Origin: Tissierellales bacterium
GTDB taxonomy: Bacteria > Bacillota > Clostridia > Tissierellales > Tissierellaceae
Length of the DNA stretch: 64,000 bases
Direction: 5' to 3'
NCBI GenBank assembly: GCA_014360205.1
Contig: JACIXZ010000008.1
Span: forward strand, 1 to 64,000
Below, in pieces: positions 10,639 to 62,844 of this stretch. Numbering within the stretch: position 1 is the stretch's first letter; every line of letters starts with the position of its first letter. Made by a program: the position numbers and the translations under genes. Below the pieces are notes generated by a model, which did no database searches, had not been told where the DNA came from, and worked only from the letters and a program-made list of their open reading frames with translations.

Positions 10639-10890
10639 TGTAAACTTAAATGAAAATTGAGGACTCCAAACTCTCTATGGTACAATGTTTTTGCAACAAA
10701 CAAATACCTCCCAGAAAGGATGAAGTCCTCATGCAAAAAGTGGACTAACGCCACTTCAAATTGCTAGTTTAAGCTTAACTGATAAGGAGAAGGTTTATAT
10801 TTATCAATTATCATCATGAAGGTGAAATTAAATCTAAATTCAATGCAATTTCATAAAACATTGTTCTATTTTTTCATGTTTAGTTTACAG
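10639..10890 (+). mobile_element. Internally deleted copy of the zinc-ribbon DDE insertion sequence
   Basis: The left terminal repeat (TGTAAACTTAAATGAAAA, from 10639) and leader lead to the transposase start (GGATGAAGTCCTCATGCAAAAA, 10718-10739 area). The sequence then jumps directly to the 3' end of the transposase (GTGGACTAACGCC..., matching 11871 onward) and the right end, which closes with AGTTTACAG at 10890. About 1 kb of transposase is missing, so this is a MITE-like derivative that cannot move alone. Confidence 0.75.
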
Positions 10891-10908
10891 AGTCAGGATG
10901 AAGTCCTC

Positions 10909-11940
10909 ATGCAAAAAATTGTATCAATAAAATGTCCAAAGTGCAACAATAATCATTCATTTTATCGTTATGGCAAAGATAAATATGGTCATCAGAAATA
11001 TCTCTGCCGTAACTGCAATCATCAATTTGCACCTGATAATCCAGTTTCTAAACAGATGCAAAATTACCCTCGTTGCCCTGTTTGTGGTAAAGCTACTTTT
11101 CTTCACCATGATTATGATTTTTACTCTAATTTTAGATGTTGTGACAAAAAGTGTAATCATTCATTGTTCATAGCTAAGCCAAATTCTATTCTACCTGCAT
11201 CTATGTCTAAGCTCATTGGTAAAACTGACTTTAAACGTATGCGTTATCCTTTGCATATTATCATTACTGCTCTTTCTATGTTTTATCTTGGCAAGAATTC
11301 TTTTAGAAATATTGCTTTGATTCTTAGAGTTGTGAATAATGTTAAAGTTTCTCACACTACTATAAGCAATTGGTGTAAAAAGTTTGCACCTTTGTTTAAT
11401 AACTTTACTCTAGAGCTTATGCCAATGATGAATTTCAATTCTGATGAATGGCATGCTGATGAAACAGTTGTTAAGATCGCAGGTAAAAAATATTACATTT
11501 GGTTTGTTATTGATTCTGAAACTCGCTTTGTCTTAGGCTTTCATTTATCGCCTTATAGAGATTCTGAGCAGGCTTTCACTATCTTTAATTCTGTAAAAAA
11601 TTTAGGTACAGTAAATTCTATTGTTAGTGATCGTTATAGTGCTTACAAAATGCCTATTAAGTCTGTATTAGGTGAAAATGTTAAGCATATTCGTGTTGAA
11701 AGTTTTAAAGATGATATCTCTAATAATCTAATTGAGTCTTTTCATCATCAATTTAAGGCTTGGTATAAAACTAAGCAGGGTTTCAATTCTTATGACTCTG
11801 CAAATAATTTAATTAGTATGTTTGTTTTCTTTTATAATTTTGTTAGACCTCATTCATCTCTTAGTGGACTAACGCCAGCTCAAGTTGCTGGTCTAAGCTT
11901 AACGGATAAAGAGAAGAAAAAATATCTTCTTATAGCTTAG
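10909..11940 (+). CDS. DDE transposase with N-terminal zinc ribbons (IS6-like)
   Basis: 343 residues from ATG 10909 (start of MQKIVSIKCPKC). An in-frame ATG at 10816 lies inside the right end of the neighbouring deleted copy, so the 31 extra residues are an artefact of the junction. Two zinc ribbons come first (CPKC...CRNC and CPVC...CDKKC). The DDE core follows: first Asp in EWHADETVVKI, second in VSDRYSAY, Glu in NNLIESFHHQFKAW, then the C-terminal RPHSSLSGLTPAQ. The frame is intact and probably active if ends are supplied. Decayed pieces of the same family occur at 8871-8972 and 12158-12232. Confidence 0.85.
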   Translation: MQKIVSIKCPKCNNNHSFYRYGKDKYGHQKYLCRNCNHQFAPDNPVSKQMQNYPRCPVCGKATFLHHDYDFYSNFRCCDKKCNHSLFIAKPNSILPASMSKLIGKTDFKRMRYPLHIIITALSMFYLGKNSFRNIALILRVVNNVKVSHTTISNWCKKFAPLFNNFTLELMPMMNFNSDEWHADETVVKIAGKKYYIWFVIDSETRFVLGFHLSPYRDSEQAFTIFNSVKNLGTVNSIVSDRYSAYKMPIKSVLGENVKHIRVESFKDDISNNLIESFHHQFKAWYKTKQGFNSYDSANNLISMFVFFYNFVRPHSSLSGLTPAQVAGLSLTDKEKKKYLLIA

Positions 11941-17596: not shown

Positions 17597-18068
17597 TCGC
17601 CCTTCCTGTCAAAATCTCCAGTCCATGTGGCAAAGCACTCAAAATAACATCTAATGATTCTTCAACAGCTTTTGGACTTCCCGGTAGATTTATTATCAAA
17701 GTTTCATTTCTTATTCCGCTTACAGCCCGTGATAGCATTGCATGTGGAGTCTTTTCAAGGCTTTTATTTAAAATAGCATAGCTTATTCCCATAGCCAGTC
17801 TATCCACCACTTCTAAAGTGGCTTCTGGTGTTATATCTCTTTTGCTAAATCCAGTGCCACCAGTGGTTAATATCAAATCTACTTTGAGTTCATCAGCCAT
17901 ATACAATAGTTCAGCTTTTATGTCTTCCTTGTCATCTTGGACAATAACAGTCCTCACTACTTCATATCCATTTTTCTCCATTATTTCCTTTATGAGTTTG
18001 CCTGATAAATCTTCTCTTAAACCTTTTGAACCTTTGTCGCTGGCTGTCAATATCCCTACTTTAAACAT
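17577..18068 (-). CDS. mogA: Molybdopterin adenylyltransferase MogA/MoaB
   Basis: 163 residues. It opens KVGILTASDKGSKGLREDLS and carries LILTTGGTGFSKRDITPEAT (about residues 68-87), the substrate-binding loop of the MogA/MoaB family. It adenylates molybdopterin before MoeA inserts the metal. The start has AGGAGGAGG upstream and overlaps the fdhA stop by 8 bases. Confidence 0.92.
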   Translation of the reverse strand: MFKVGILTASDKGSKGLREDLSGKLIKEIMEKNGYEVVRTVIVQDDKEDIKAELLYMADELKVDLILTTGGTGFSKRDITPEATLEVVDRLAMGISYAILNKSLEKTPHAMLSRAVSGIRNETLIINLPGSPKAVEESLDVILSALPHGLEILTGRASECARE

Positions 18069-20757
18069 AGTCCTCCTCCTCTAACTTTTCTATGCTTACA
18101 GCAGATACTTTTAGCTCTGGTATTTTTGCTATCTCATCTAAAAAAGTATTGGTCAAGTAATTAGCTTGTCCATCTGTGAAATGAAATGGCATAAATAAAA
18201 CATCTCTGTCTATCGTATCCACAACTTTTGCCCTCGTTATGATCTCGCCTCTTCTCGATTTAACTCTTACTTTATCCCCGTTTTGTATGGTCAATCTGTT
18301 GGCAGTTTCTTCGTTTATTTCTATATATGAACTTCCTGCTATCTCATTTAGTCCTTCTTCCTTACCAGTCATAGTCCTAGTGTGATAATGATAAAGAATT
18401 CTACCAGTAGTCAAAATAAACGGATATTCATCATCTGGAGTTTCTCTGCTTTGAACATATTCAACAGGCATAAACAAACCCTTGCCTCTTGAAATTTTGT
18501 CTTTGTGCAAGAATTTTGTTCCTATATCATTTAAATCCTTGCATGGCCATTGTATGCCATTTGCCTCTATCTTTTCATAGTTGATTCCACTGTACTGAGG
18601 AGTTAGCAAACTTATTTCTTCCATTATCTCTTTAGGATGAGAATATTCCTTTTCATAGCCTAAAGTGTTCATTATCTCCATGATTATTTGCCAGTCTGGC
18701 TTTGCAAGTCCATTTTCTTTTACCGCTTTTCTTACTCTTTGAACTCTTCTTTCAGTATTAGTAAAAGTGCCGTCTTTCTGTGCAAAAGAAACCGCTGGCA
18801 GCACTAAATCTGCATATTCGCAAGTTTCAGTAAAAAATATATCTTGAACTATCAAAAAGTCAACTTTTTTTAGCGCACTGATCACATGATTTGTGTCAGG
18901 GTCGGATACAACTGGATTTTCTCCCATGATGTATAAAAATTTTATTTTTTCTTCCTCTATAAGTTTGAACATCTCTGTGATGGTTGCCCCGACTCTATCA
19001 GAAAGTTTTGTGTTCCATGCTCTTTCGAATTTTTCGAGACTTTCTCTATGAAAAATCTTCTGATATCCTGTCAAATCTGCAGGTGTTGCCCCCATATCAC
19101 TTGCACCTTGAACATTGTTCTGCCCTCTCAATGGGTTTATTCCAGCGTTTTCCTTACCAACATTTCCACATAAAAGCGCTAAATTAGACAAACTCATCAC
19201 TGCATGTGTTCCAGTAGTATGCTGAGTAACCCCCATAGTATAGTAAATCCCTGCATTTGGAGAATTTGCATAGATTAAAGCAGCTTTTATTATCAAGTCT
19301 TTATCGACTCCACAAATCTCAGCACTTTTTTCAGGTGGATAGTTTTTAACAAGTCTTACTAATTCATCGAAATTCTCACAATTCTTCTTAATATATTCTT
19401 CATCATAGAGTTTGTTTTCTATGATAACATTCATCATACCATTTATTAGGGCTATATTTGTGCCAGGTTTAAGCTGAATATGGACATCTGCAAATTTTGA
19501 AAGCTCAATCTTCCTTGGATCTGCGACAATCAATTTTGCTCCCTTTTTAACTGCTTGCTTTATAAAAGCACCTATGACAGGGTGCGTTTCAGTAGTATTT
19601 GAACCTATCACAAATATAGTATCATTGTCCTTTATCTCTGCGATGCTATTTGTCATAGCACCTGTTCCTAGTGTAGTTGCAAGCCCTGCAACTGTTGAAG
19701 AATGTCAGAGCCTTGCGCAGTGGTCTATATTATTCGTCTTTAGTACAGCTCTGAAAAGCTTTTGAAATAAGTAATTCTCTTCATTTGTACATCTTGCTGA
19801 TGCAAGTCCCGCGAAAGAATCAGGCCCACTTTCTTCCATGTAAGCTTCTACTTTTTCTTTGATTATTTCATATGCTCTATCCCACGATATTTCTTTAAAT
19901 TCCCCATTCTCTTTTAGCAATGGTGTATTTAATCTATCTGGATGATTTATGAAATTAAATGAAAACTTTCCTTTAACACACAATAACCCCTCATTAACAG
20001 CATCTTTGACAGGTTCTACCCCTACTACTTTATCTTCTTTGACGAGTAGGTTTATCTGGCAACCTACTCCACAAAATGTGCAAGTAGTCTTAACTTTTTT
20101 TACTTCCCATGTTCTAAACTTCTCTTTAGATTTTGGCAACAATGCTCCAGTGGGACATACTGAAACGCAATTTCCACATGATACGCAGTTTGAATTGATC
20201 AAACCATCATTAAATGGAGTCCCGATTATCGTATCAAACCCGCGATTTACAAAATCTATTGCCCCTGTAACTTGAAGCCTTGAACAAACTCTAACGCAAA
20301 GACCACATAAGATGCATTTTTGCGCGTCATATATGTAAAATGGATTTGTGTCGTCTATATATCTTTCTCTTATTTTCCCGCGATGAGTCCTAAATTTAAC
20401 ATCGTATTCATAGGCATAATCTTGAAGCAGACAGTTCCCTGCCTTTTCACAAGTTAGGCAGTCATTTGGATGATTGTCAAGAAGTAACCTCAATATGTCT
20501 TTTCTAGCTTCTATCACTCTATCAGTCTTAGTATGTACGACCATTCCCTCTTTTACTTTAGTTGAACAAGAAGTTTGAAGCTTTTTATTACCTTCAATTT
20601 CTACAATGCACATTCTGCATGCACCAAATATATCAAGCCTTTCATCATAGCAGAGCTTTGGTATTTCTATGCCAGCTAATTCTGCCGCTTGTATGACAGT
20701 TAATGAACTGTCGACCTCAATTTCTTTATTATCTATAGTAAGCTTTACTGTTTTCAT
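18061..20757 (-). CDS. fdhA: Selenocysteine formate dehydrogenase catalytic subunit
   Basis: Read through an in-frame TGA at 19705-19707 this gives 898 residues with selenocysteine at 351, in the context NIDHCARL-U-HSSTVAGL, the same place as Sec140 of E. coli FdhF. N-terminal [2Fe-2S] cysteines are C36, C47, C50 and C64. A second Fe-S site follows (CLTCEKAGNC), then two [4Fe-4S] ferredoxin motifs (CILCGLCVRVC, CVSCGNCVSVC) and the catalytic-domain cluster CTFCGVGC (C226, C229, C233). The C-terminal pterin-binding part is complete (HYHTRTMTG, VKSRRGEI). The NuoG-like front plus NuoF and NuoE neighbours indicate a soluble NAD-dependent, possibly bifurcating, formate dehydrogenase. The metal may be tungsten. 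GGAGGG precedes the ATG. Confidence 0.94.
19675..19693 (-). promoter_or_regulatory. Bacterial SECIS hairpin of fdhA
   Basis: On the minus strand, 11 bases after the UGA, AGTTGCA and TGCAACT form a 7-bp stem with loop GGGCT, resembling the E. coli fdhF SECIS loop (GGUCU). It lies in the coding region, as bacterial SECIS elements do, and should recruit SelB with tRNA-Sec. Confidence 0.75.
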
Positions 20758-30914: not shown

Positions 30915-30956
30915 AATAATAAATGAACCGACAAATTTGTCGGTTCATTTATTATT
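30915..30956 (-). terminator. Perfect 42-bp palindrome after hcp
   Basis: A perfect 21+21 palindrome with no unpaired spacer (centre AAA|TTT at 30935/30936), overlapping the hcp stop codon. As RNA it forms a long stem followed on the minus strand by TTGATT, so it can act as the hcp terminator. The complete symmetry is also compatible with a protein-binding site. Confidence 0.65.
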
Positions 30957-32604
30957 ATGCTAAAAAGTATTCTAAATCGCTCTCTACATCTTTTATTGTC
31001 CCAATTCCAAAATTATCTACTAATACTTTTGCAACATTTGGTGATAAAAATGCAGGCAAAGTTGGCCCTAGGTGAATATTTTTAACACCTAAACTCAATA
31101 ATGCTAGCAATACTATCACCGCTTTTTGTTCATACCAAGCTATATTGTATGCAATAGGCAATTCATTTATGTCATTTAATTCAAATATTTCCTTTAACTT
31201 AAGTGCTATAAGGGCTAATGAATAGCTGTCATTGCATTGACCTGCATCTAGCACTCTAGGTATTCCATTTATATCTCCTAAGTTTAACTTGTTGTATCTA
31301 TATTTAGCACAGCCCGCAGTAAGTATGACTGTGTCTTTTGGAAGTGCTTGTGCAAAATCAGTGTAGTAGTTTCTGCTCTTCATTCTACCGTCGCAACCTG
31401 CCATTACAAAGAATTTTTTAATATCTCCATTTTTGACTGCTTCTACAATCTTATCTGCAAGAGCAAAGACTTGTGCATGTGCAAAGCCACCCACTATTTT
31501 TCCTGTTTCTATTTCAGTTGGCGCAGGAAGTCTTTTTGCATGTTCTATTATTTCACTAAAGTCTTTTGGGTTTCCATCTTTTCTGTCGGGAATATGTTTA
31601 AATCCAGGGTATCCAGAGCTGCCTGTTGTATATACTCTGTCCTTATATGATTCTTTTGGTGGTATTATGCAATTTGTCGTAAATAGTATAGGCCCATTGA
31701 ATTTTTCAAATTCTTCATTTTGTTTCCACCAAGCATTGCCGTAGTTTCCAACAAAATTATCATATTTTTTAAATGCTGGATAATAGTTTGCTGGAAGCAT
31801 TTCACTATGAGTGTATACATCTACTCCAGTGCCTTGAGTCTGAATTAATAATTCCTCTAAATCTTTCAAATCATGGCCTGATACGAGTATAGCAGGATTG
31901 TTTCTTACGCCTATATTTACTTCTGTTATTTCAGGATTCCCATAGGTAGTTGTATTAGCTTGATCTAATAGAGCCATAGTCTTAACTCCATATTCTCCTG
32001 TTTCTAGAGTTAGTTTAACTAAATCATCTACTGTTAAACTATCATCTGTTATCAGGCTTAATGCTCTTCTAATGAATTTAGGTATTTCTTTGTTTTCAAA
32101 ACCTAAGTTGTGTGCATGTTCATAATATGCTGCCATGCCTTTAACTCCATAAGTCACTAGCTCTCTTAGAGATCTTATATCTTCATCTTTTGTGCTAAGT
32201 ACACCCACTTCGTCTGAAGTTGCTTTGTATATTATGTCTTCATCAGTATTTACTCTAAATTTAGCATAATCTGATAAATTGCTTAAATCAACGCCTTTTT
32301 CCAAAAGTGCTCTCTCAATTTCTTCTCTTTTGATAAGAGCTTCTCTAATCTTACTTAAAAATCTTTCTCGATCAAAGTTAGCATTTGTTATTGTCATAAA
32401 CAATCCATCAACTATAAATCTATCCAGCCCTTCTATTTCTAACCCTACTTCATCTGCTTTAGTTGCTAGTTGAGAAATTCCCTTTAGTGCGTATATCATA
32501 AGGTCTTGAAGGTTTGCGACTTCACTAGTCTTTCCACAAACTCCTACCTTCGTACATCCAGTTCCCTTTGATGCTTCTTGACATTGAAAACAAAACATAT
32601 CCAT
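30955..32604 (-). CDS. hcp: Hydroxylamine reductase (hybrid cluster protein)
   Basis: 549 residues. N-terminal cluster cysteines in MFCFQCQE and [10 protein letters not shown] (class I/II spacing). Hybrid-cluster ligands are seen in [35 protein letters not shown] and [10 protein letters not shown]. The protein reduces hydroxylamine in vitro and acts as an NO reductase in vivo. Single gene behind an activator-type site at 32661-32674. GGAGGG precedes the ATG. Fits a nitrosative-stress role in an anaerobe. Confidence 0.96.
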
Positions 32605-54996: not shown

Positions 54997-55776
54997 TTAT
55001 GCAAATTTAACAACTATATCTGGATTTAAAACTCTGAATGTGAAAGATTCTATTGCGAATAATTTAATTTTTTCTTCATTAGCTTCTACGAATCCTATCG
55101 CAAAATCTTGTCCAATTGTAAGTTCTAGGTCTTCTGAATTAAATGGTACTAAAAAAGCTCCGTTTACTGCTTTTGAAACTATTATTTCTCCACCAATTAA
55201 TTTAGCTATCTTCTTTTCTAGAGGATATCCATTGTCACTTAATATAATGTCTTTGAATTGTTCTTCTCCTACCACTAAAACATAAGGTGGATTTGTATAA
55301 GCTTCTTTTAATTCCATCAAACCTTTTCCAATGGCATTTAAAATTGATTCTCTGTCTTTTCCAAAAGGAATGGCTTTTTTACCAACTTTATCTAGTCCAA
55401 CAATTCCTATATCCTCAAGTCCATAGTAAACAGCCTTTTCTTCAAATAAAGCTAATTTCTTCAATGCATCTTCAAGGGGTTCTAAATCAGGATCTTTTGC
55501 CCCCCTTACTATATCGTCCAACTCTTTTCTATCTAGTTCAAATTCAACTCTTACTTCAGTAAGTGGTTTTACATCATAGTTAGAATAATGTATTGAATCT
55601 GCCTTTTTTATCTCTGAAAGTCTACCTTCTCCTATTGCATTAAATTCTAAACCCATAGGCCCATTTACTCTAACTACTCTTCTTGCTGTTAGATAACTAG
55701 TAAGAACTTCTCTGGCTCTATTATCTATTTCTTCCCAAACTTTATCTGATATTGGAGCCATTTTTCTATTTAGCAT
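54997..55776 (-). CDS. Encapsulin shell protein (family 1)
   Basis: 259 residues, the usual size for the HK97-fold family-1 shell protein (linocin M18 type). Family phrases: MAPISDKVWEEIDNRAREVL, VRVNGPMGLEFNAIGEGRL, IPFGKDRESILNAIGKGL and QDFAIGFVEANEEKIKLFAI. It assembles into a nanocompartment; the ferritin-like protein just upstream carries the docking peptide. GGAGGGATAAC precedes the ATG. Confidence 0.96.
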   Translation of the reverse strand: MLNRKMAPISDKVWEEIDNRAREVLTSYLTARRVVRVNGPMGLEFNAIGEGRLSEIKKADSIHYSNYDVKPLTEVRVEFELDRKELDDIVRGAKDPDLEPLEDALKKLALFEEKAVYYGLEDIGIVGLDKVGKKAIPFGKDRESILNAIGKGLMELKEAYTNPPYVLVVGEEQFKDIILSDNGYPLEKKIAKLIGGEIIVSKAVNGAFLVPFNSEDLELTIGQDFAIGFVEANEEKIKLFAIESFTFRVLNPDIVVKFA

Positions 55777-55788
55777 ATGTTATCCCTC

Positions 55789-56127
55789 CTATTTCAAATC
55801 TCCTAAACCTAAATCTTTATCTTCTTTATCTTCTGTAACGCTTTCTTCTACTTCAAGTAAATTTTCTGTGGTAAAGAGATATTTCTTCAGATTTTCATCC
55901 CATACATCCATATTTCTTCTAAGCCATTCTAATGTCATTACAGCATGTTCAATTTCTTCGTCTCTATTATGAGCTAATACTTCTTTCAATGTCTCATCAT
56001 CAGATGCTGCGACTCTTTGGTTATACCAATCAACAGCCTCTATTTCTTCTTTTAAACTCATAAGAGCTCTTGTAATATCTTTTGTTTTTTCATCTAATTT
56101 ATCAATTGGTTCATGATATTGCGTCAT
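55789..56127 (-). CDS. Encapsulated ferritin-like protein
   Basis: 112 residues. Two-helix ferritin-like fold with the ligand pattern EEIEAVDWYNQR and HNRDEEIEHAVMTLEWLRR (Glu, Glu and His of the ferroxidase site). An acidic linker leads to the C-terminal encapsulin-targeting peptide DLGLGDLK. It oxidises and deposits iron inside the shell. First gene of the two-gene operon; an IS110 element lies directly upstream. Confidence 0.95.
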   Translation of the reverse strand: MTQYHEPIDKLDEKTKDITRALMSLKEEIEAVDWYNQRVAASDDETLKEVLAHNRDEEIEHAVMTLEWLRRNMDVWDENLKKYLFTTENLLEVEESVTEDKEDKDLGLGDLK

Positions 56128-56400: not shown

Positions 56401-57579
56401 ATGTTTTATGTTGGTATTGATATTGCTAAGAAAAACCACGAAGCTTCTATTATTGATTCTAATGGTAAGCTTCTTGATAAAAGCATTTCCTTTTCAAATT
56501 CTCAAGCTGGTTGTGCTAAATTAGTCTCTATGCTTGATAAATTCGAAACCGATTCCTCCAATGTTATTATTGGAATGGAAGCAACTGGTCATTACTGGGT
56601 TAGCCTTTATTCTTATCTGATTGATCTTGGTTTTACTGTTTATGTTATTAATCCTATCCAATCAGATGCTTTTAGAAAAATGTATATTAGACAAACCAAG
56701 AATGATTCTAAGGATTCTTTTGTAATAGCTCAAATTATGCGTTTTGGTCAATTTTCATCTACTTCTTTAGCCGATGAAGATATTATGGCTTTACGTCAAC
56801 TATCTCGTTATCGACTTGCTTTAGTAGATGAATGTTCTGATTGGAAACGCAAGTGTATTGCTCTTTTAGATCAAGTTTTCCCTGAATACTCTAAGCTTTT
56901 TTCTGATACCTTTGGGGTTACTTCGAGAGAGCTTCTATCTAAATATCCTACTCCCGAAGACATGTTGTCTATCGATACAAATACTCTTGCTGAACTTTTA
57001 TCTAAAGCAAGTAAAGGTCGATTTGGTGTTTCAAAAGCTTCTGAAATACAAGAATATGCTTCTAATACCTTTGGAGTAAATTTTGCGAAAGATGCCTTTG
57101 CATTCCAAATCAAACAAATTATTGCCCAGATTAATTTTATCGAAGAACAGCTGAAAGAACTTGAAACTGAAATTTCTACACTTCTTCACCAAACTAATTC
57201 AGTTATCACTACTATTACAGGAATTGGTGATGTGCTAGGTGCAATTATTATTGGAGAAATTGGTGATATTTCTCGTTTTGAATCAGCTTCACAACTGGTT
57301 GCTTATGCAGGACTGGATGTAGCTGTAAAACAATCTGGAGATTTCATTGGAACACAGACTAAAATTTCAAAACGTGGTTCTCCATATCTTCGTAGAGCAA
57401 TTTGGCTAGCTGCGACTGTTGCAGCTTTTAAAGATCCAGCATTATCTGTATATTATCAATCACTTAGGGCAAGAGGGAAACACCATTTAACAGCTGTAGG
57501 CGCAGTTGCTAGAAAAATGTGCAACATTATATTTGCTGTATTACGTGATAACAAACCTTATGTGCCTGATATCAAATAA
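56401..57579 (+). CDS. IS110-family transposase
   Basis: 392 residues, intact. The N-terminal RuvC-like DEDD domain shows GIDIAKKNHEASIID, then GMEATGHYWVSLYSYL and RQTKNDSKDSFVIA with the acidic residues. A coiled middle leads to the C-terminal Tnp2 domain with the catalytic-serine region: TGIGDVLGAIIIGEIGDI, LVAYAGLDV, SKRGSPYLRRAIW. The length suits the IS110 subgroup rather than the shorter IS1111. No frameshift, so potentially active. Confidence 0.95.
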   Translation: MFYVGIDIAKKNHEASIIDSNGKLLDKSISFSNSQAGCAKLVSMLDKFETDSSNVIIGMEATGHYWVSLYSYLIDLGFTVYVINPIQSDAFRKMYIRQTKNDSKDSFVIAQIMRFGQFSSTSLADEDIMALRQLSRYRLALVDECSDWKRKCIALLDQVFPEYSKLFSDTFGVTSRELLSKYPTPEDMLSIDTNTLAELLSKASKGRFGVSKASEIQEYASNTFGVNFAKDAFAFQIKQIIAQINFIEEQLKELETEISTLLHQTNSVITTITGIGDVLGAIIIGEIGDISRFESASQLVAYAGLDVAVKQSGDFIGTQTKISKRGSPYLRRAIWLAATVAAFKDPALSVYYQSLRARGKHHLTAVGAVARKMCNIIFAVLRDNKPYVPDIK

Positions 57580-57828: not shown

Positions 57829-58284
57829 TCAATAGGCCAAGTTTTCCTTTATGAATTCAAGAACTTCTTGTGGATGTGGTCCTGGTTTAACATTTCTAAA
57901 CTCCTTTACAAGCTCTCCAAATTTGTTGAATACAAATGTGCTTCTCTCTATCCCTAAGACTTCTTTTCCAAACATTTTCTTGTTTTTAAGTACCCCATAT
58001 TTCTCTAAAACTTCACCTGTATCATCAGTCAAAAGTATAAAATTCAATTCATTTTTTCTTTTAAATTTTTGATGTGATTCTTGAGAATCCTTACTTATCC
58101 CAATTATCACTGTGTTTAACTTTTCAAATTCCTGATTTAGATCCCTAAACCCATTAGCCTCAATTGTTCAACCAGAGGTGTTGTCTTTTGGATAGAAATA
58201 AACTACTACATTTTTACCTTTAAAATCCGCCAAAGATACCATTTTCCCTTCATCAGATATTAATTTGAAATCATATTTACCCAA
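57829..58284 (-). CDS. Selenocysteine peroxiredoxin (BCP/PrxQ type)
   Basis: Read through an in-frame TGA at 58168-58170 this gives 151 residues with selenocysteine at 39, in YPKDNTSG-U-TIEANGFRDL, exactly where the BCP family has the peroxidatic cysteine (PGCTxEACxFRD). The start is TTG 58284 with GGAGGG 6 bases upstream. The second, resolving cysteine of the family is Asn here, so it would be a one-Sec enzyme needing an outside reductant. The rest is normal (VIIGISKDSQESHQKF, ERSTFVFNKFGELVKEF). Follows the acetyltransferase gene by 11 bases. It reduces peroxides. An ordinary gene finder would report only the last 93 residues. Confidence 0.88.
58134..58151 (-). promoter_or_regulatory. Candidate SECIS hairpin of the peroxiredoxin gene
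   Basis: On the minus strand, 16 bases after the UGA, GGTTTAG pairs with CTAAATC (7 bp, one G-U), leaving a 4-base loop GGAT. Position and G-containing loop fit bacterial SECIS elements. Confidence 0.6.
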
Positions 58285-60985: not shown

Positions 60986-61029
60986 GCTTAGGTAGATAAA
61001 AATAAACTTCCATTTAGAGGATGGTGCAT

Positions 61030-62844
61030 ATGAAAGGTACAGTAGTTAATATATGGTTTAATACTATCGAGAAAATAATGGGCAAGGAAAAAAGAAATGA
61101 AGTAATGAGAAAAAATGGCTGGAATCCAGATAAGCTAATAACTCCTTTAGAAGAAATCGAGGATCAAAAGATTCTTAGCCTAATGAATGCATTTGCAAAA
61201 GAAAACAACATGACTTCAAATGAGATGTGGAGAATTTTAGGTCAAAATAACATCAATTCCTTTTATAACTGGTTCCCTTCTTATTTTGAAAAGAATTCAG
61301 CCAAAAGTTTCTTAGCACTTATGGACAAAGTACATACTCAGTTGACTAAAATGATACCCGGTGCTAAGCCCCCTAGACTGATTCCTGAAGATATTGATGA
61401 CAATACCTTGATAATTACTTACAAATCAAAAAGAGGGTTAATTGATTATTTCCTTGGTCTGATAGAAGGAACAGGAGAATTTTTCAACGAAAAAATTGAA
61501 TCCGAAATAATTGAAAAAGAAGTTGATAGCGATGGTGTTCATACAGTAAGAGTAAAAATACATTTTGAAAAAGGTGACAAGAAACATAAAACCTATAAAG
61601 CTTCAAAATTGCTTTCTTTATCTTTTATAAAATATGCACCTCTTAAGATTGCTATCTACCCAACTATCTTAAGTTTCGCTCTTATTGCAATTTTAAATGG
61701 GTTTACAGACTATATCCTATTGATAGGAGCTCCTTTAATAGTTCTTATCTCCACAATGCTTGTTTCAAAAACAATCATAAAGCCTACATTGGATTTGCCT
61801 GAAGAGATTAAAAAACTCGGAGAAATTCATTTAGATGAGGATTTGATTGTACACACTAATGACTACAATGAAATGCTTTTTAATTCTGTAAATGAATCAA
61901 AAAATAGATTGAGAGAAGAAATAACATATTTTAAAGGTGGAATGGATGATTTATATTCATTCATAGAAAAATTTTCTAAAGTAGCAGATAATTTAGGAGA
62001 TGTTTCCGATTCAATCTCTAAAGCTGTCCAAGAAGTTGCAGATGGTGCTGTACATCAAGCAAACGAGGCTGAAAACTCTGTAAGCATTTTGTCAGATAAT
62101 ATCGAAATGATTGATAAAATAAGCAAAATGCAATTAGATGGTAAAGAAAGTTTAGGAAAAGCTGTCGAGCAAATAGAAACTTCCTTCAATAATCTTGAAA
62201 GAGTTTCATCAAACTTAGAAGATGTTAAAAACAATTTTTCATATGTAAACAATCAAGGTCAGGAACTCAGCAAAAAAATCAAAAGTACTATAGAAATAGT
62301 AAATACAGTTGAGAGTATAGCAGAGCAAACAAATCTCTTAGCTTTGAATGCCTCAATAGAAGCTGCTAGGGCAGGAGAAATGGGCAGAGGGTTTAGTGTT
62401 GTCGCTGAAGAAATTAGAAAATTAGCAGAAAACTCAAAAGAAGCTGTAAATACTATTAATTCAAGCTTAAATGAATTCACAAAGAGTGTAAACAGCATGG
62501 TTGGACAGATTAACGACCAGTTTTTACAACTAGAATCAGGTACTCAGACTGTAGCAGATGTGGTTAAAGATAGCAAATTAGCTTCAAATATGATAAACGA
62601 TGTAAAAGATATGATATCCGAAATATCTGAAAGACTTATAGCAGAAACTAAAAAAATAGATAAAGTATTTGAAAACATAAATAACCTAGCTGCAATCACT
62701 GAAGAAAATAGTGCTACATCAGAAGAAATGAGTGCTAATGTTACTAATTTCTCTTCTGAAATCATAAAATTAACCGAAAATATACAAGAACTAGAAAAAG
62801 TTGTATTATTCCTAAAAAAAGAACTCAGCAGATATACTCTATAA
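61030..62844 (+). CDS. H-NOX methyl-accepting chemotaxis protein
   Basis: 604 residues from ATG 61030 (AGAGG nine bases upstream; ATG 61021 has no room for a ribosome site). Residues 1-185 are an H-NOX heme domain starting [10 protein letters not shown], with proximal heme ligand His102 ([10 protein letters not shown]) and the heme-propionate motif Tyr131-Ser133-Arg135 (YKSKR). Two membrane helices (about 203-223 and 226-247), a HAMP-like stretch and the MCP signalling domain follow, with the hairpin tip [21 protein letters not shown]. Distal pocket residues Trp9, Asn74 and Tyr140 agree with oxygen-binding H-NOX proteins. It should sense O2 (or NO) and steer motility through CheA/CheW. Confidence 0.95.

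What the first reader, a model, noticed from the sequence alone, without database searches (positions are those of the whole stretch)
61030..61449. H-NOX chemoreceptor with the residues of the oxygen-binding subclass
Counting from MKGTVVN, His102, Tyr131/Ser133/Arg135, Trp9, Asn74, Tyr140 and Pro115 fall on the numbers known for the Caldanaerobacter (Thermoanaerobacter) tengcongensis H-NOX. The Trp9-Asn74-Tyr140 hydrogen-bond network is what allows stable O2 binding there; most facultative-bacterial H-NOX proteins lack Tyr140 and bind only NO/CO. The receptor would thus be an O2 sensor for avoidance in an anaerobe.
Basis: partly seen in the sequence, partly recalled or inferred. Interest (0 to 1): 0.65.

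Follow-up and report, generated by a model that had tools for sequence, protein, structure and literature searches.

The report
Oxygen-type H-NOX chemoreceptor lacking homemade heme
This gene encodes a known type of heme-based oxygen-sensing chemotaxis receptor in a strictly anaerobic, flagellated bacterium; the odd part is that this genome, like most genomes carrying the receptor that were checked, shows no recognised way to make the heme the receptor needs.

Summary
The alignment to 1U4H is gapless to residue 163; an AlphaFold2 model (pLDDT 93) superposes on Tt H-NOX at about 2 A. The Trp9/Asn74/Tyr140 triad is not special to this gene: 119 of 120 full-length MCP-fused homologues have it, none of nine stand-alone H-NOX of the same phylum does. 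So this is a new member of a known class, the O2-binding H-NOX chemoreceptors of obligate anaerobes. "O2 sensor" is likely. "Avoidance" is not shown, and the triad does not fix affinity (C. botulinum H-NOX has the same closest residues and about 1000-fold weaker O2 binding). Of 48 carriers given all heme searches, 35 lack both known final heme-making enzymes, including a Caldanaerobacter subterraneus strain. Heme must then be scavenged; in vivo heme loading is an open question.

The parts
61030..62844 (+). H-NOX-MCP chemoreceptor gene, 604 aa from ATG 61030 (607 aa from the upstream ATG 61021)
   Evidence: ORF; AGAGG 9 nt before ATG 61030; Pfam HNOB and MCPsignal
61030..61584 (+). H-NOX heme domain, residues 1-185
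   Evidence: Pfam HNOB; gapless to 163 with 1U4H; model pLDDT 93.3, VIA Z 22-26 to Tt H-NOX
61054..61056 (+). codon Trp9 (distal H-bond triad)
61249..61251 (+). codon Asn74 (distal H-bond triad)
61333..61335 (+). codon His102 (proximal heme ligand)
61372..61374 (+). codon Pro115 (heme distortion residue)
61420..61434 (+). YxSxR motif, Tyr131-Ser133-Arg135 (heme propionate contacts)
61447..61449 (+). codon Tyr140 (distal H-bond donor to bound O2)
61636..61779 (+). two hydrophobic stretches, probable two-helix membrane hairpin between sensor and signalling domains
   Evidence: Kyte-Doolittle windows over 1.6 starting at residues 206-235 of the 607-aa form; topology inferred
62239..62697 (+). MCP signalling domain
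   Evidence: Pfam MCPsignal 119.7 bits, residues 407-559 of the 607-aa form; same place in the genome scan

Best explanation
This is an H-NOX chemoreceptor of the O2-binding (obligate-anaerobe) subclass in a Soehngenia species (Tissierellaceae). The N-terminal H-NOX domain holds a ferrous b-type heme on His102, with Pro115 and YxSxR setting the heme. O2 binds the iron and is held by Tyr140, positioned by Trp9 and Asn74. Binding changes the domain shape, and this passes through a two-helix membrane anchor to a cytoplasmic MCP signalling tail that controls CheA/CheW and so the flagella. The most likely behavioural result is moving away from O2. Shown: the domain, the residues in register, the fold, the fusion, and che and flagellar genes in the genome. 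Inferred: heme binding, O2 as the physiological ligand, signal transfer and the sign of the response. As the genome has no recognised heme pathway, the heme is inferred to be scavenged, so O2 sensing may depend on external heme.
For: Pfam HNOB 152 bits plus MCPsignal 120 bits. Ungapped alignment to Tt H-NOX. Model pLDDT 93.3; TM 0.86-0.92 to Tt H-NOX against about 0.7-0.86 to NO-type H-NOX and sGC beta; Z 22.4-25.7 against 14-22 for bacterial NO-type H-NOX. Triad WNY in 119 of 120 full-length MCP-fused homologues and 0 of 9 stand-alone H-NOX. Strong purifying selection on the domain within the genus, dN/dS 0.02-0.06 (dS near saturation). CheA, CheR, CheB, CheD, CheW x2, flagellin-family protein, FliM and FliY-type switch protein present. 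Soehngenia longivitae is an anaerobe, motile by peritrichous flagella, catalase- and oxidase-negative (PMC7763609). A review assigns Tyr-bearing, MCP-fused H-NOX of obligate anaerobes to likely O2 sensing (PMC8738867).
Against: No measurement of ligand binding. The same closest residues give about 1000-fold different O2 affinity in C. botulinum and Tt (PMC7356049), and this domain is only 42% identical to Tt. H-NOX of this class also bind NO and CO. No known heme biosynthesis in this genome, so the holo state in vivo is unproven. No gene next to it names O2 as the cue.
Confidence: 0.68

Rival explanations
1. NO receptor: the domain binds O2 in the test tube, but the cue in vivo is NO (or other reactive nitrogen), met in anoxic sites with nitrate reducers.
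For: Ferrous hemes prefer NO by the sliding-scale rule (PMC7356049); the C. botulinum homologue was described as a femtomolar NO sensor (title cited in PMC9814294); a hybrid cluster protein (Hcp, linked to NO removal) lies in the window at 30955-32604.
Against: The Trp9/Asn74/Tyr140 triad, which lets O2 bind, is conserved across MCP-fused members and absent from the stand-alone proteins. Hcp is common in anaerobes and 29 kb away. S. longivitae does not reduce nitrate.
Confidence: 0.18
2. Heme-availability or redox receptor: in a cell that cannot make heme, the receptor mainly reports whether heme is present (apo versus holo) or its iron state, steering cells to heme or lysed biomass.
For: No ALAD, PBGD, ferrochelatase, AhbD or cytochrome bd in the genome. 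Of 48 carriers fully searched, 35 lack both ferrochelatase and AhbD, yet all keep the heme ligands HPYSR. Apo H-NOX signalling has precedent in Vibrio cholerae (PMC7108781 abstract).
Against: Conservation of the O2-binding triad has no evident use in a pure heme sensor. The Vibrio mechanism uses cysteines and this domain has none. Heme in H-NOX is normally buried. Receptors with the same pocket occur in heme makers too (16 of 58 carriers with ALAD and AhbD).
Confidence: 0.09
3. Relic: a transferred receptor that is no longer used because heme is missing.
For: Tree placement outside its own family's H-NOX suggests transfer; no heme pathway.
Against: Intact in all three Soehngenia genomes with dN/dS 0.02-0.06 in the H-NOX domain and full conservation of heme and pocket residues.
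Confidence: 0.03

Closest known systems
Caldanaerobacter subterraneus (Thermoanaerobacter tengcongensis) H-NOX chemoreceptor, PDB 1U4H/1U55/1XBN
   Same: MCP-fused H-NOX; all heme-ligand and distal triad residues in register; 42-43% identity over the domain; superposes at about 2 A; the C. subterraneus strain tested (DSM 13054) also lacks ALAD, PBGD, ferrochelatase and AhbD
   Different: I5V and Y138I; mesophilic genus; 57% of domain residues differ; separate clade in the tree
Fusibacter H-NOX-MCP (Fusibacter sp. 3D3, F. paucivorans, F. ferrireducens)
   Same: Closest outside the genus: 66-71% identity over the domain, 63-67% over the full length; they share a fully supported side of the tree
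   Different: Different genus and gene neighbourhood; the two Fusibacter genomes tested (3D3, F. paucivorans) do have ALAD and PBGD, though neither has AhbD
Soehngenia longivitae 1933P and MAG SM1-B8.1 orthologues
   Same: 91% and 94% over the domain, about 90% full length, same amidohydrolase downstream
   Different: The segment just upstream of the receptor differs
Clostridium botulinum H-NOX (SONO)
   Same: H-NOX with distal Tyr and the same residues closest to the ligand (PMC7356049)
   Different: About 1000-fold weaker O2 binding than Tt; its sequence was not compared here
Stand-alone NO-type H-NOX (Shewanella, Nostoc, and the short H-NOX of the same phylum)
   Same: Fold; of the nine short ones seen here His102 in all, Pro115 in eight, YxSxR in seven
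   Different: No MCP; triad positions 9/74/140 are L/I/F, W/F, L/I/F; 18-22% identity for the solved ones

Membership tests
O2-binding H-NOX of obligate anaerobes | H-NOX (HNOB) fold and profile | tested here: met
   Pfam 152.3 bits against cut-off 25.5; Foldseek TM 0.86-0.92 to Tt H-NOX
O2-binding H-NOX of obligate anaerobes | Proximal His102, Pro115 and YxSxR | tested here: met
   All present in register
O2-binding H-NOX of obligate anaerobes | Distal Tyr140 with Trp9 and Asn74 | tested here: met
   All three present; 119 of 120 full-length MCP-fused homologues share them
O2-binding H-NOX of obligate anaerobes | Fusion to a membrane-bound methyl-accepting chemotaxis domain | tested here: met
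   MCPsignal 119.7 bits; hydrophobic hairpin
O2-binding H-NOX of obligate anaerobes | Stable six-coordinate ferrous-oxy complex | not testable with these tools
   Needs spectra of purified protein
O2-binding H-NOX of obligate anaerobes | Host is an obligate anaerobe | tested here: inconclusive
   Same-genus S. longivitae is anaerobic, catalase- and oxidase-negative (PMC7763609); no cytochrome bd found in this genome; the strain itself is not named
Functional chemoreceptor | CheA/CheW/CheR/CheB and flagella in the same genome | tested here: met
   Pfam hits on contig C23 loci; seven MCP signalling matches in the genome
Functional chemoreceptor | O2-dependent change in swimming | not testable with these tools
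   Needs aerotaxis assay
Heme-synthesising host | ALAD and PBGD plus ferrochelatase or AhbD | tested here: not met
   PF00490, PF01379, PF00762 absent; TIGR04545 only generic radical-SAM matches (best 70 bits, cut-off 500); genome 100% complete

The most novel reading that the evidence does not exclude
In heme auxotrophic anaerobes the MCP-fused H-NOX works as a conditional receptor whose output depends on scavenged heme. It would report heme supply (apo/holo) and O2 together, so that these anaerobes gain O2 sensing only where heme is available. The textbook O2-sensing H-NOX of Caldanaerobacter, studied after expression in heme-making E. coli (my recollection), would itself be such a protein.
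Probability: 0.15. Interest if true: 0.68.

Novelty: new member of a known kind. Interest (0 to 1): 0.34.

Why it matters
The receptor itself adds one more mesophilic, cultivable-genus member to a known class, useful for testing whether MCP-fused H-NOX really drive O2 responses, which is described as undemonstrated even for the type protein (PMC9814294). The wider point is that 35 of 48 carriers tested with every heme search show no known final step of heme synthesis, including a C. subterraneus strain. If right, the accepted picture of these proteins as always-loaded O2 sensors needs a heme supply, and a simple test (heme-free versus heme-fed cells) would tell whether their signalling is conditional on scavenged heme.

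Tried and rejected
I did not use repeat or RNA tools because nothing pointed to repeats or RNA. A conserved operon partner for the receptor was looked for in Soehngenia, Fusibacter and Caldanaerobacter loci and not found. The triad as a mark of something unusual in this gene was rejected: it is class-wide. The Vibrio-type cysteine redox mechanism was rejected because the domain has no cysteine. AhbD matches at 70-171 bits were rejected as generic radical-SAM proteins, since such matches ring in all 14 control genomes; I took 316 bits and above as AhbD, with a paralogue band (AhbC-like, 176-277 bits) found only beside it; no match reaches the curated cut-off of 500, so these calls are by gap, not by the curated line. 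Literature on H-NOX together with heme biosynthesis or auxotrophy gave nothing; three key older papers are not held.

Full report
WHAT IS THERE. The frame 61021-62844 (+) is open. Pfam finds HNOB (152 bits) and MCPsignal (120 bits). Hydropathy shows two adjoining hydrophobic stretches at residues 206-253 of the 607-aa form. The layout is H-NOX, two-helix anchor, signalling tail, with both functional domains inferred to be cytoplasmic.

RESIDUES AND FOLD. The best solved relative is the Caldanaerobacter (Tt) H-NOX 1U4H, E 7e-48, gapless through residue 163. Trp9, Asp45, Trp67, Asn74, Ile75, Phe78, His102, Pro115, Tyr131, Ser133, Arg135, Tyr140 and Leu144 are identical; position 5 is Val (Ile in Tt) and 138 is Ile (Tyr in Tt). 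AlphaFold2 on an alignment of 40 homologues gives pLDDT 93.3 and pTM 0.88. Foldseek ranks 18 Tt H-NOX chains first (TM 0.86-0.92, 40-43% identity), above the NO-type H-NOX and soluble guanylate cyclase. VIA-align gives Z 22.4-25.7 for Tt (rmsd 1.7-2.5 A), and 14-22 for the bacterial NO-type proteins. I could not measure side-chain distances, so the triad's geometry is inferred from the ungapped superposition.

IS THE TRIAD SPECIAL? Within the phylum the triad follows the MCP fusion. WNY is found in 119 of 120 full-length MCP-fused homologues (the exception, L018, has Phe140) and in all five MCP-type sequences whose open frame is short in their loci. It is found in none of nine stand-alone H-NOX. 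Among 398 genomes sampled from the phylum 40 carry an H-NOX match, and 18 of 28 in the family do.

WHAT THE RESIDUES DO NOT SAY. Published values for C. botulinum and Caldanaerobacter H-NOX, which have the same residues closest to the ligand, are KD(O2) 5.3e-5 M and 4.4e-8 M (PMC7356049). Affinity cannot be read off the triad. One paper on the type protein states that its O2-sensor function is not yet demonstrated in relation to living conditions, and offers metabolic adaptation or avoidance as possibilities (PMC9814294). A review considers O2 chemotaxis likely for the MCP-fused class (PMC8738867). The sign of the response cannot be inferred from sequence.

THE HOST. The nearest named relatives are Soehngenia longivitae (91% over the domain) and MAG SM1-B8.1 (94%), both Tissierellaceae; the genomes G015 and G016, given as same genus, are these two (identical coordinates). 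S. longivitae is an anaerobe, motile by peritrichous flagella, catalase- and oxidase-negative, and does not use nitrate (PMC7763609). The window's own genome holds CheA, CheR, CheB, CheD, two CheW, FliM, a FliN/FliY-type switch protein and a flagellin-family protein on contig C23, and seven MCP signalling matches. A working chemotaxis pathway is therefore credible.

HISTORY. In a maximum-likelihood tree of 132 H-NOX domains, the five Soehngenia rows sit with Fusibacter and allied sequences, and 16 sequences from other genera of the same family form a separate, fully supported group (100/99, with one unplaced MAG sequence) elsewhere. Identity is 71% to Fusibacter sp. 3D3 against about 36% to the family's own type. 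Horizontal exchange is the simplest reading; old paralogues with unequal loss is the alternative. I did not build a species tree here.

THE HEME PROBLEM. The own genome (100% complete) has no ferrochelatase, no ALA dehydratase, no porphobilinogen deaminase, no AhbD (only generic radical-SAM matches) and no cytochrome bd. The two other Soehngenia genomes agree. Ferrochelatase was absent from all 66 genomes tested, with positive controls ringing. Taking AhbD as 316 bits or more, 17 of 58 MCP-fused carriers have it, and 16 of these also have ALAD; 22 lack ALAD. ALAD and PBGD agree in every carrier. Of the 48 carriers searched for all markers, 35 have neither ferrochelatase nor AhbD, by my count; ten further carriers (G430-G439) were not searched for ferrochelatase. 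The Caldanaerobacter subterraneus genome tested (strain DSM 13054) is among those lacking everything. Heme ligands are intact in every carrier whatever its pathway status, and dN/dS in the genus is 0.02-0.06 (dS is high, so only roughly known), which argues that heme is still bound and so taken up. I did not identify an importer. No base rate for non-carriers was measured, so I do not claim that carriers are richer in heme auxotrophs than their relatives; the point is that presence of the receptor does not imply a heme pathway. An unrecognised pathway remains possible.

VERDICT. A new member of the known O2-binding, MCP-fused H-NOX class; O2 is the most likely cue. The direction of response and the heme supply are open. 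Interest is modest for the receptor and raised by the heme question.

Noticed in passing
window 57829-58284 (-): Bcp-type peroxiredoxin with an in-frame TGA at the place of the catalytic cysteine (KDNTSG*TIEA): probable selenocysteine peroxiredoxin.
   Followed up: partly
window 18061-20757 (-): Formate dehydrogenase alpha subunit with an in-frame TGA (DHCARL*HSSTV): probable selenocysteine enzyme, split in two by ordinary ORF calling.
   Followed up: partly
window 54997-56127 (-): Encapsulin shell gene next to an EncFtn-like encapsulated ferritin, 5 kb from the H-NOX gene.
   Followed up: partly
window 30955-32604 (-): Hybrid cluster protein (Prismane, 599 bits), a candidate for NO or hydroxylamine removal.
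   Followed up: no
window 56401-57579 (+) and 10816-11940 (+): IS110-type and IS240/IS6-type transposases; the IS110 element lies between the encapsulin pair and the peroxiredoxin, near the receptor.
   Followed up: no
L018 (G013, same family): H-NOX-MCP with natural Phe140 but Trp9, Asn74 and Tyr78 kept: a natural test of whether Tyr78 can replace Tyr140.
   Followed up: no
L002-L019 (same family, other genera): Many family H-NOX carry tyrosine at both 78 and 140, that is, two possible distal H-bond donors.
   Followed up: no
L139 (G072): H-NOX-MCP reading frame broken within the H-NOX domain into two frames: frameshift, pseudogene or sequencing error.
   Followed up: no
L052 1121-1684 and 3167-3730 (-): S. 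longivitae carries two frames with the same start, coding a small lipoprotein-like 188-aa protein, on either side of a 180-aa frame just upstream of the receptor.
   Followed up: no
G027 (same family): AhbD-like gene (342 bits) without ALAD or PBGD: perhaps uses a scavenged siroheme-type precursor.
   Followed up: no
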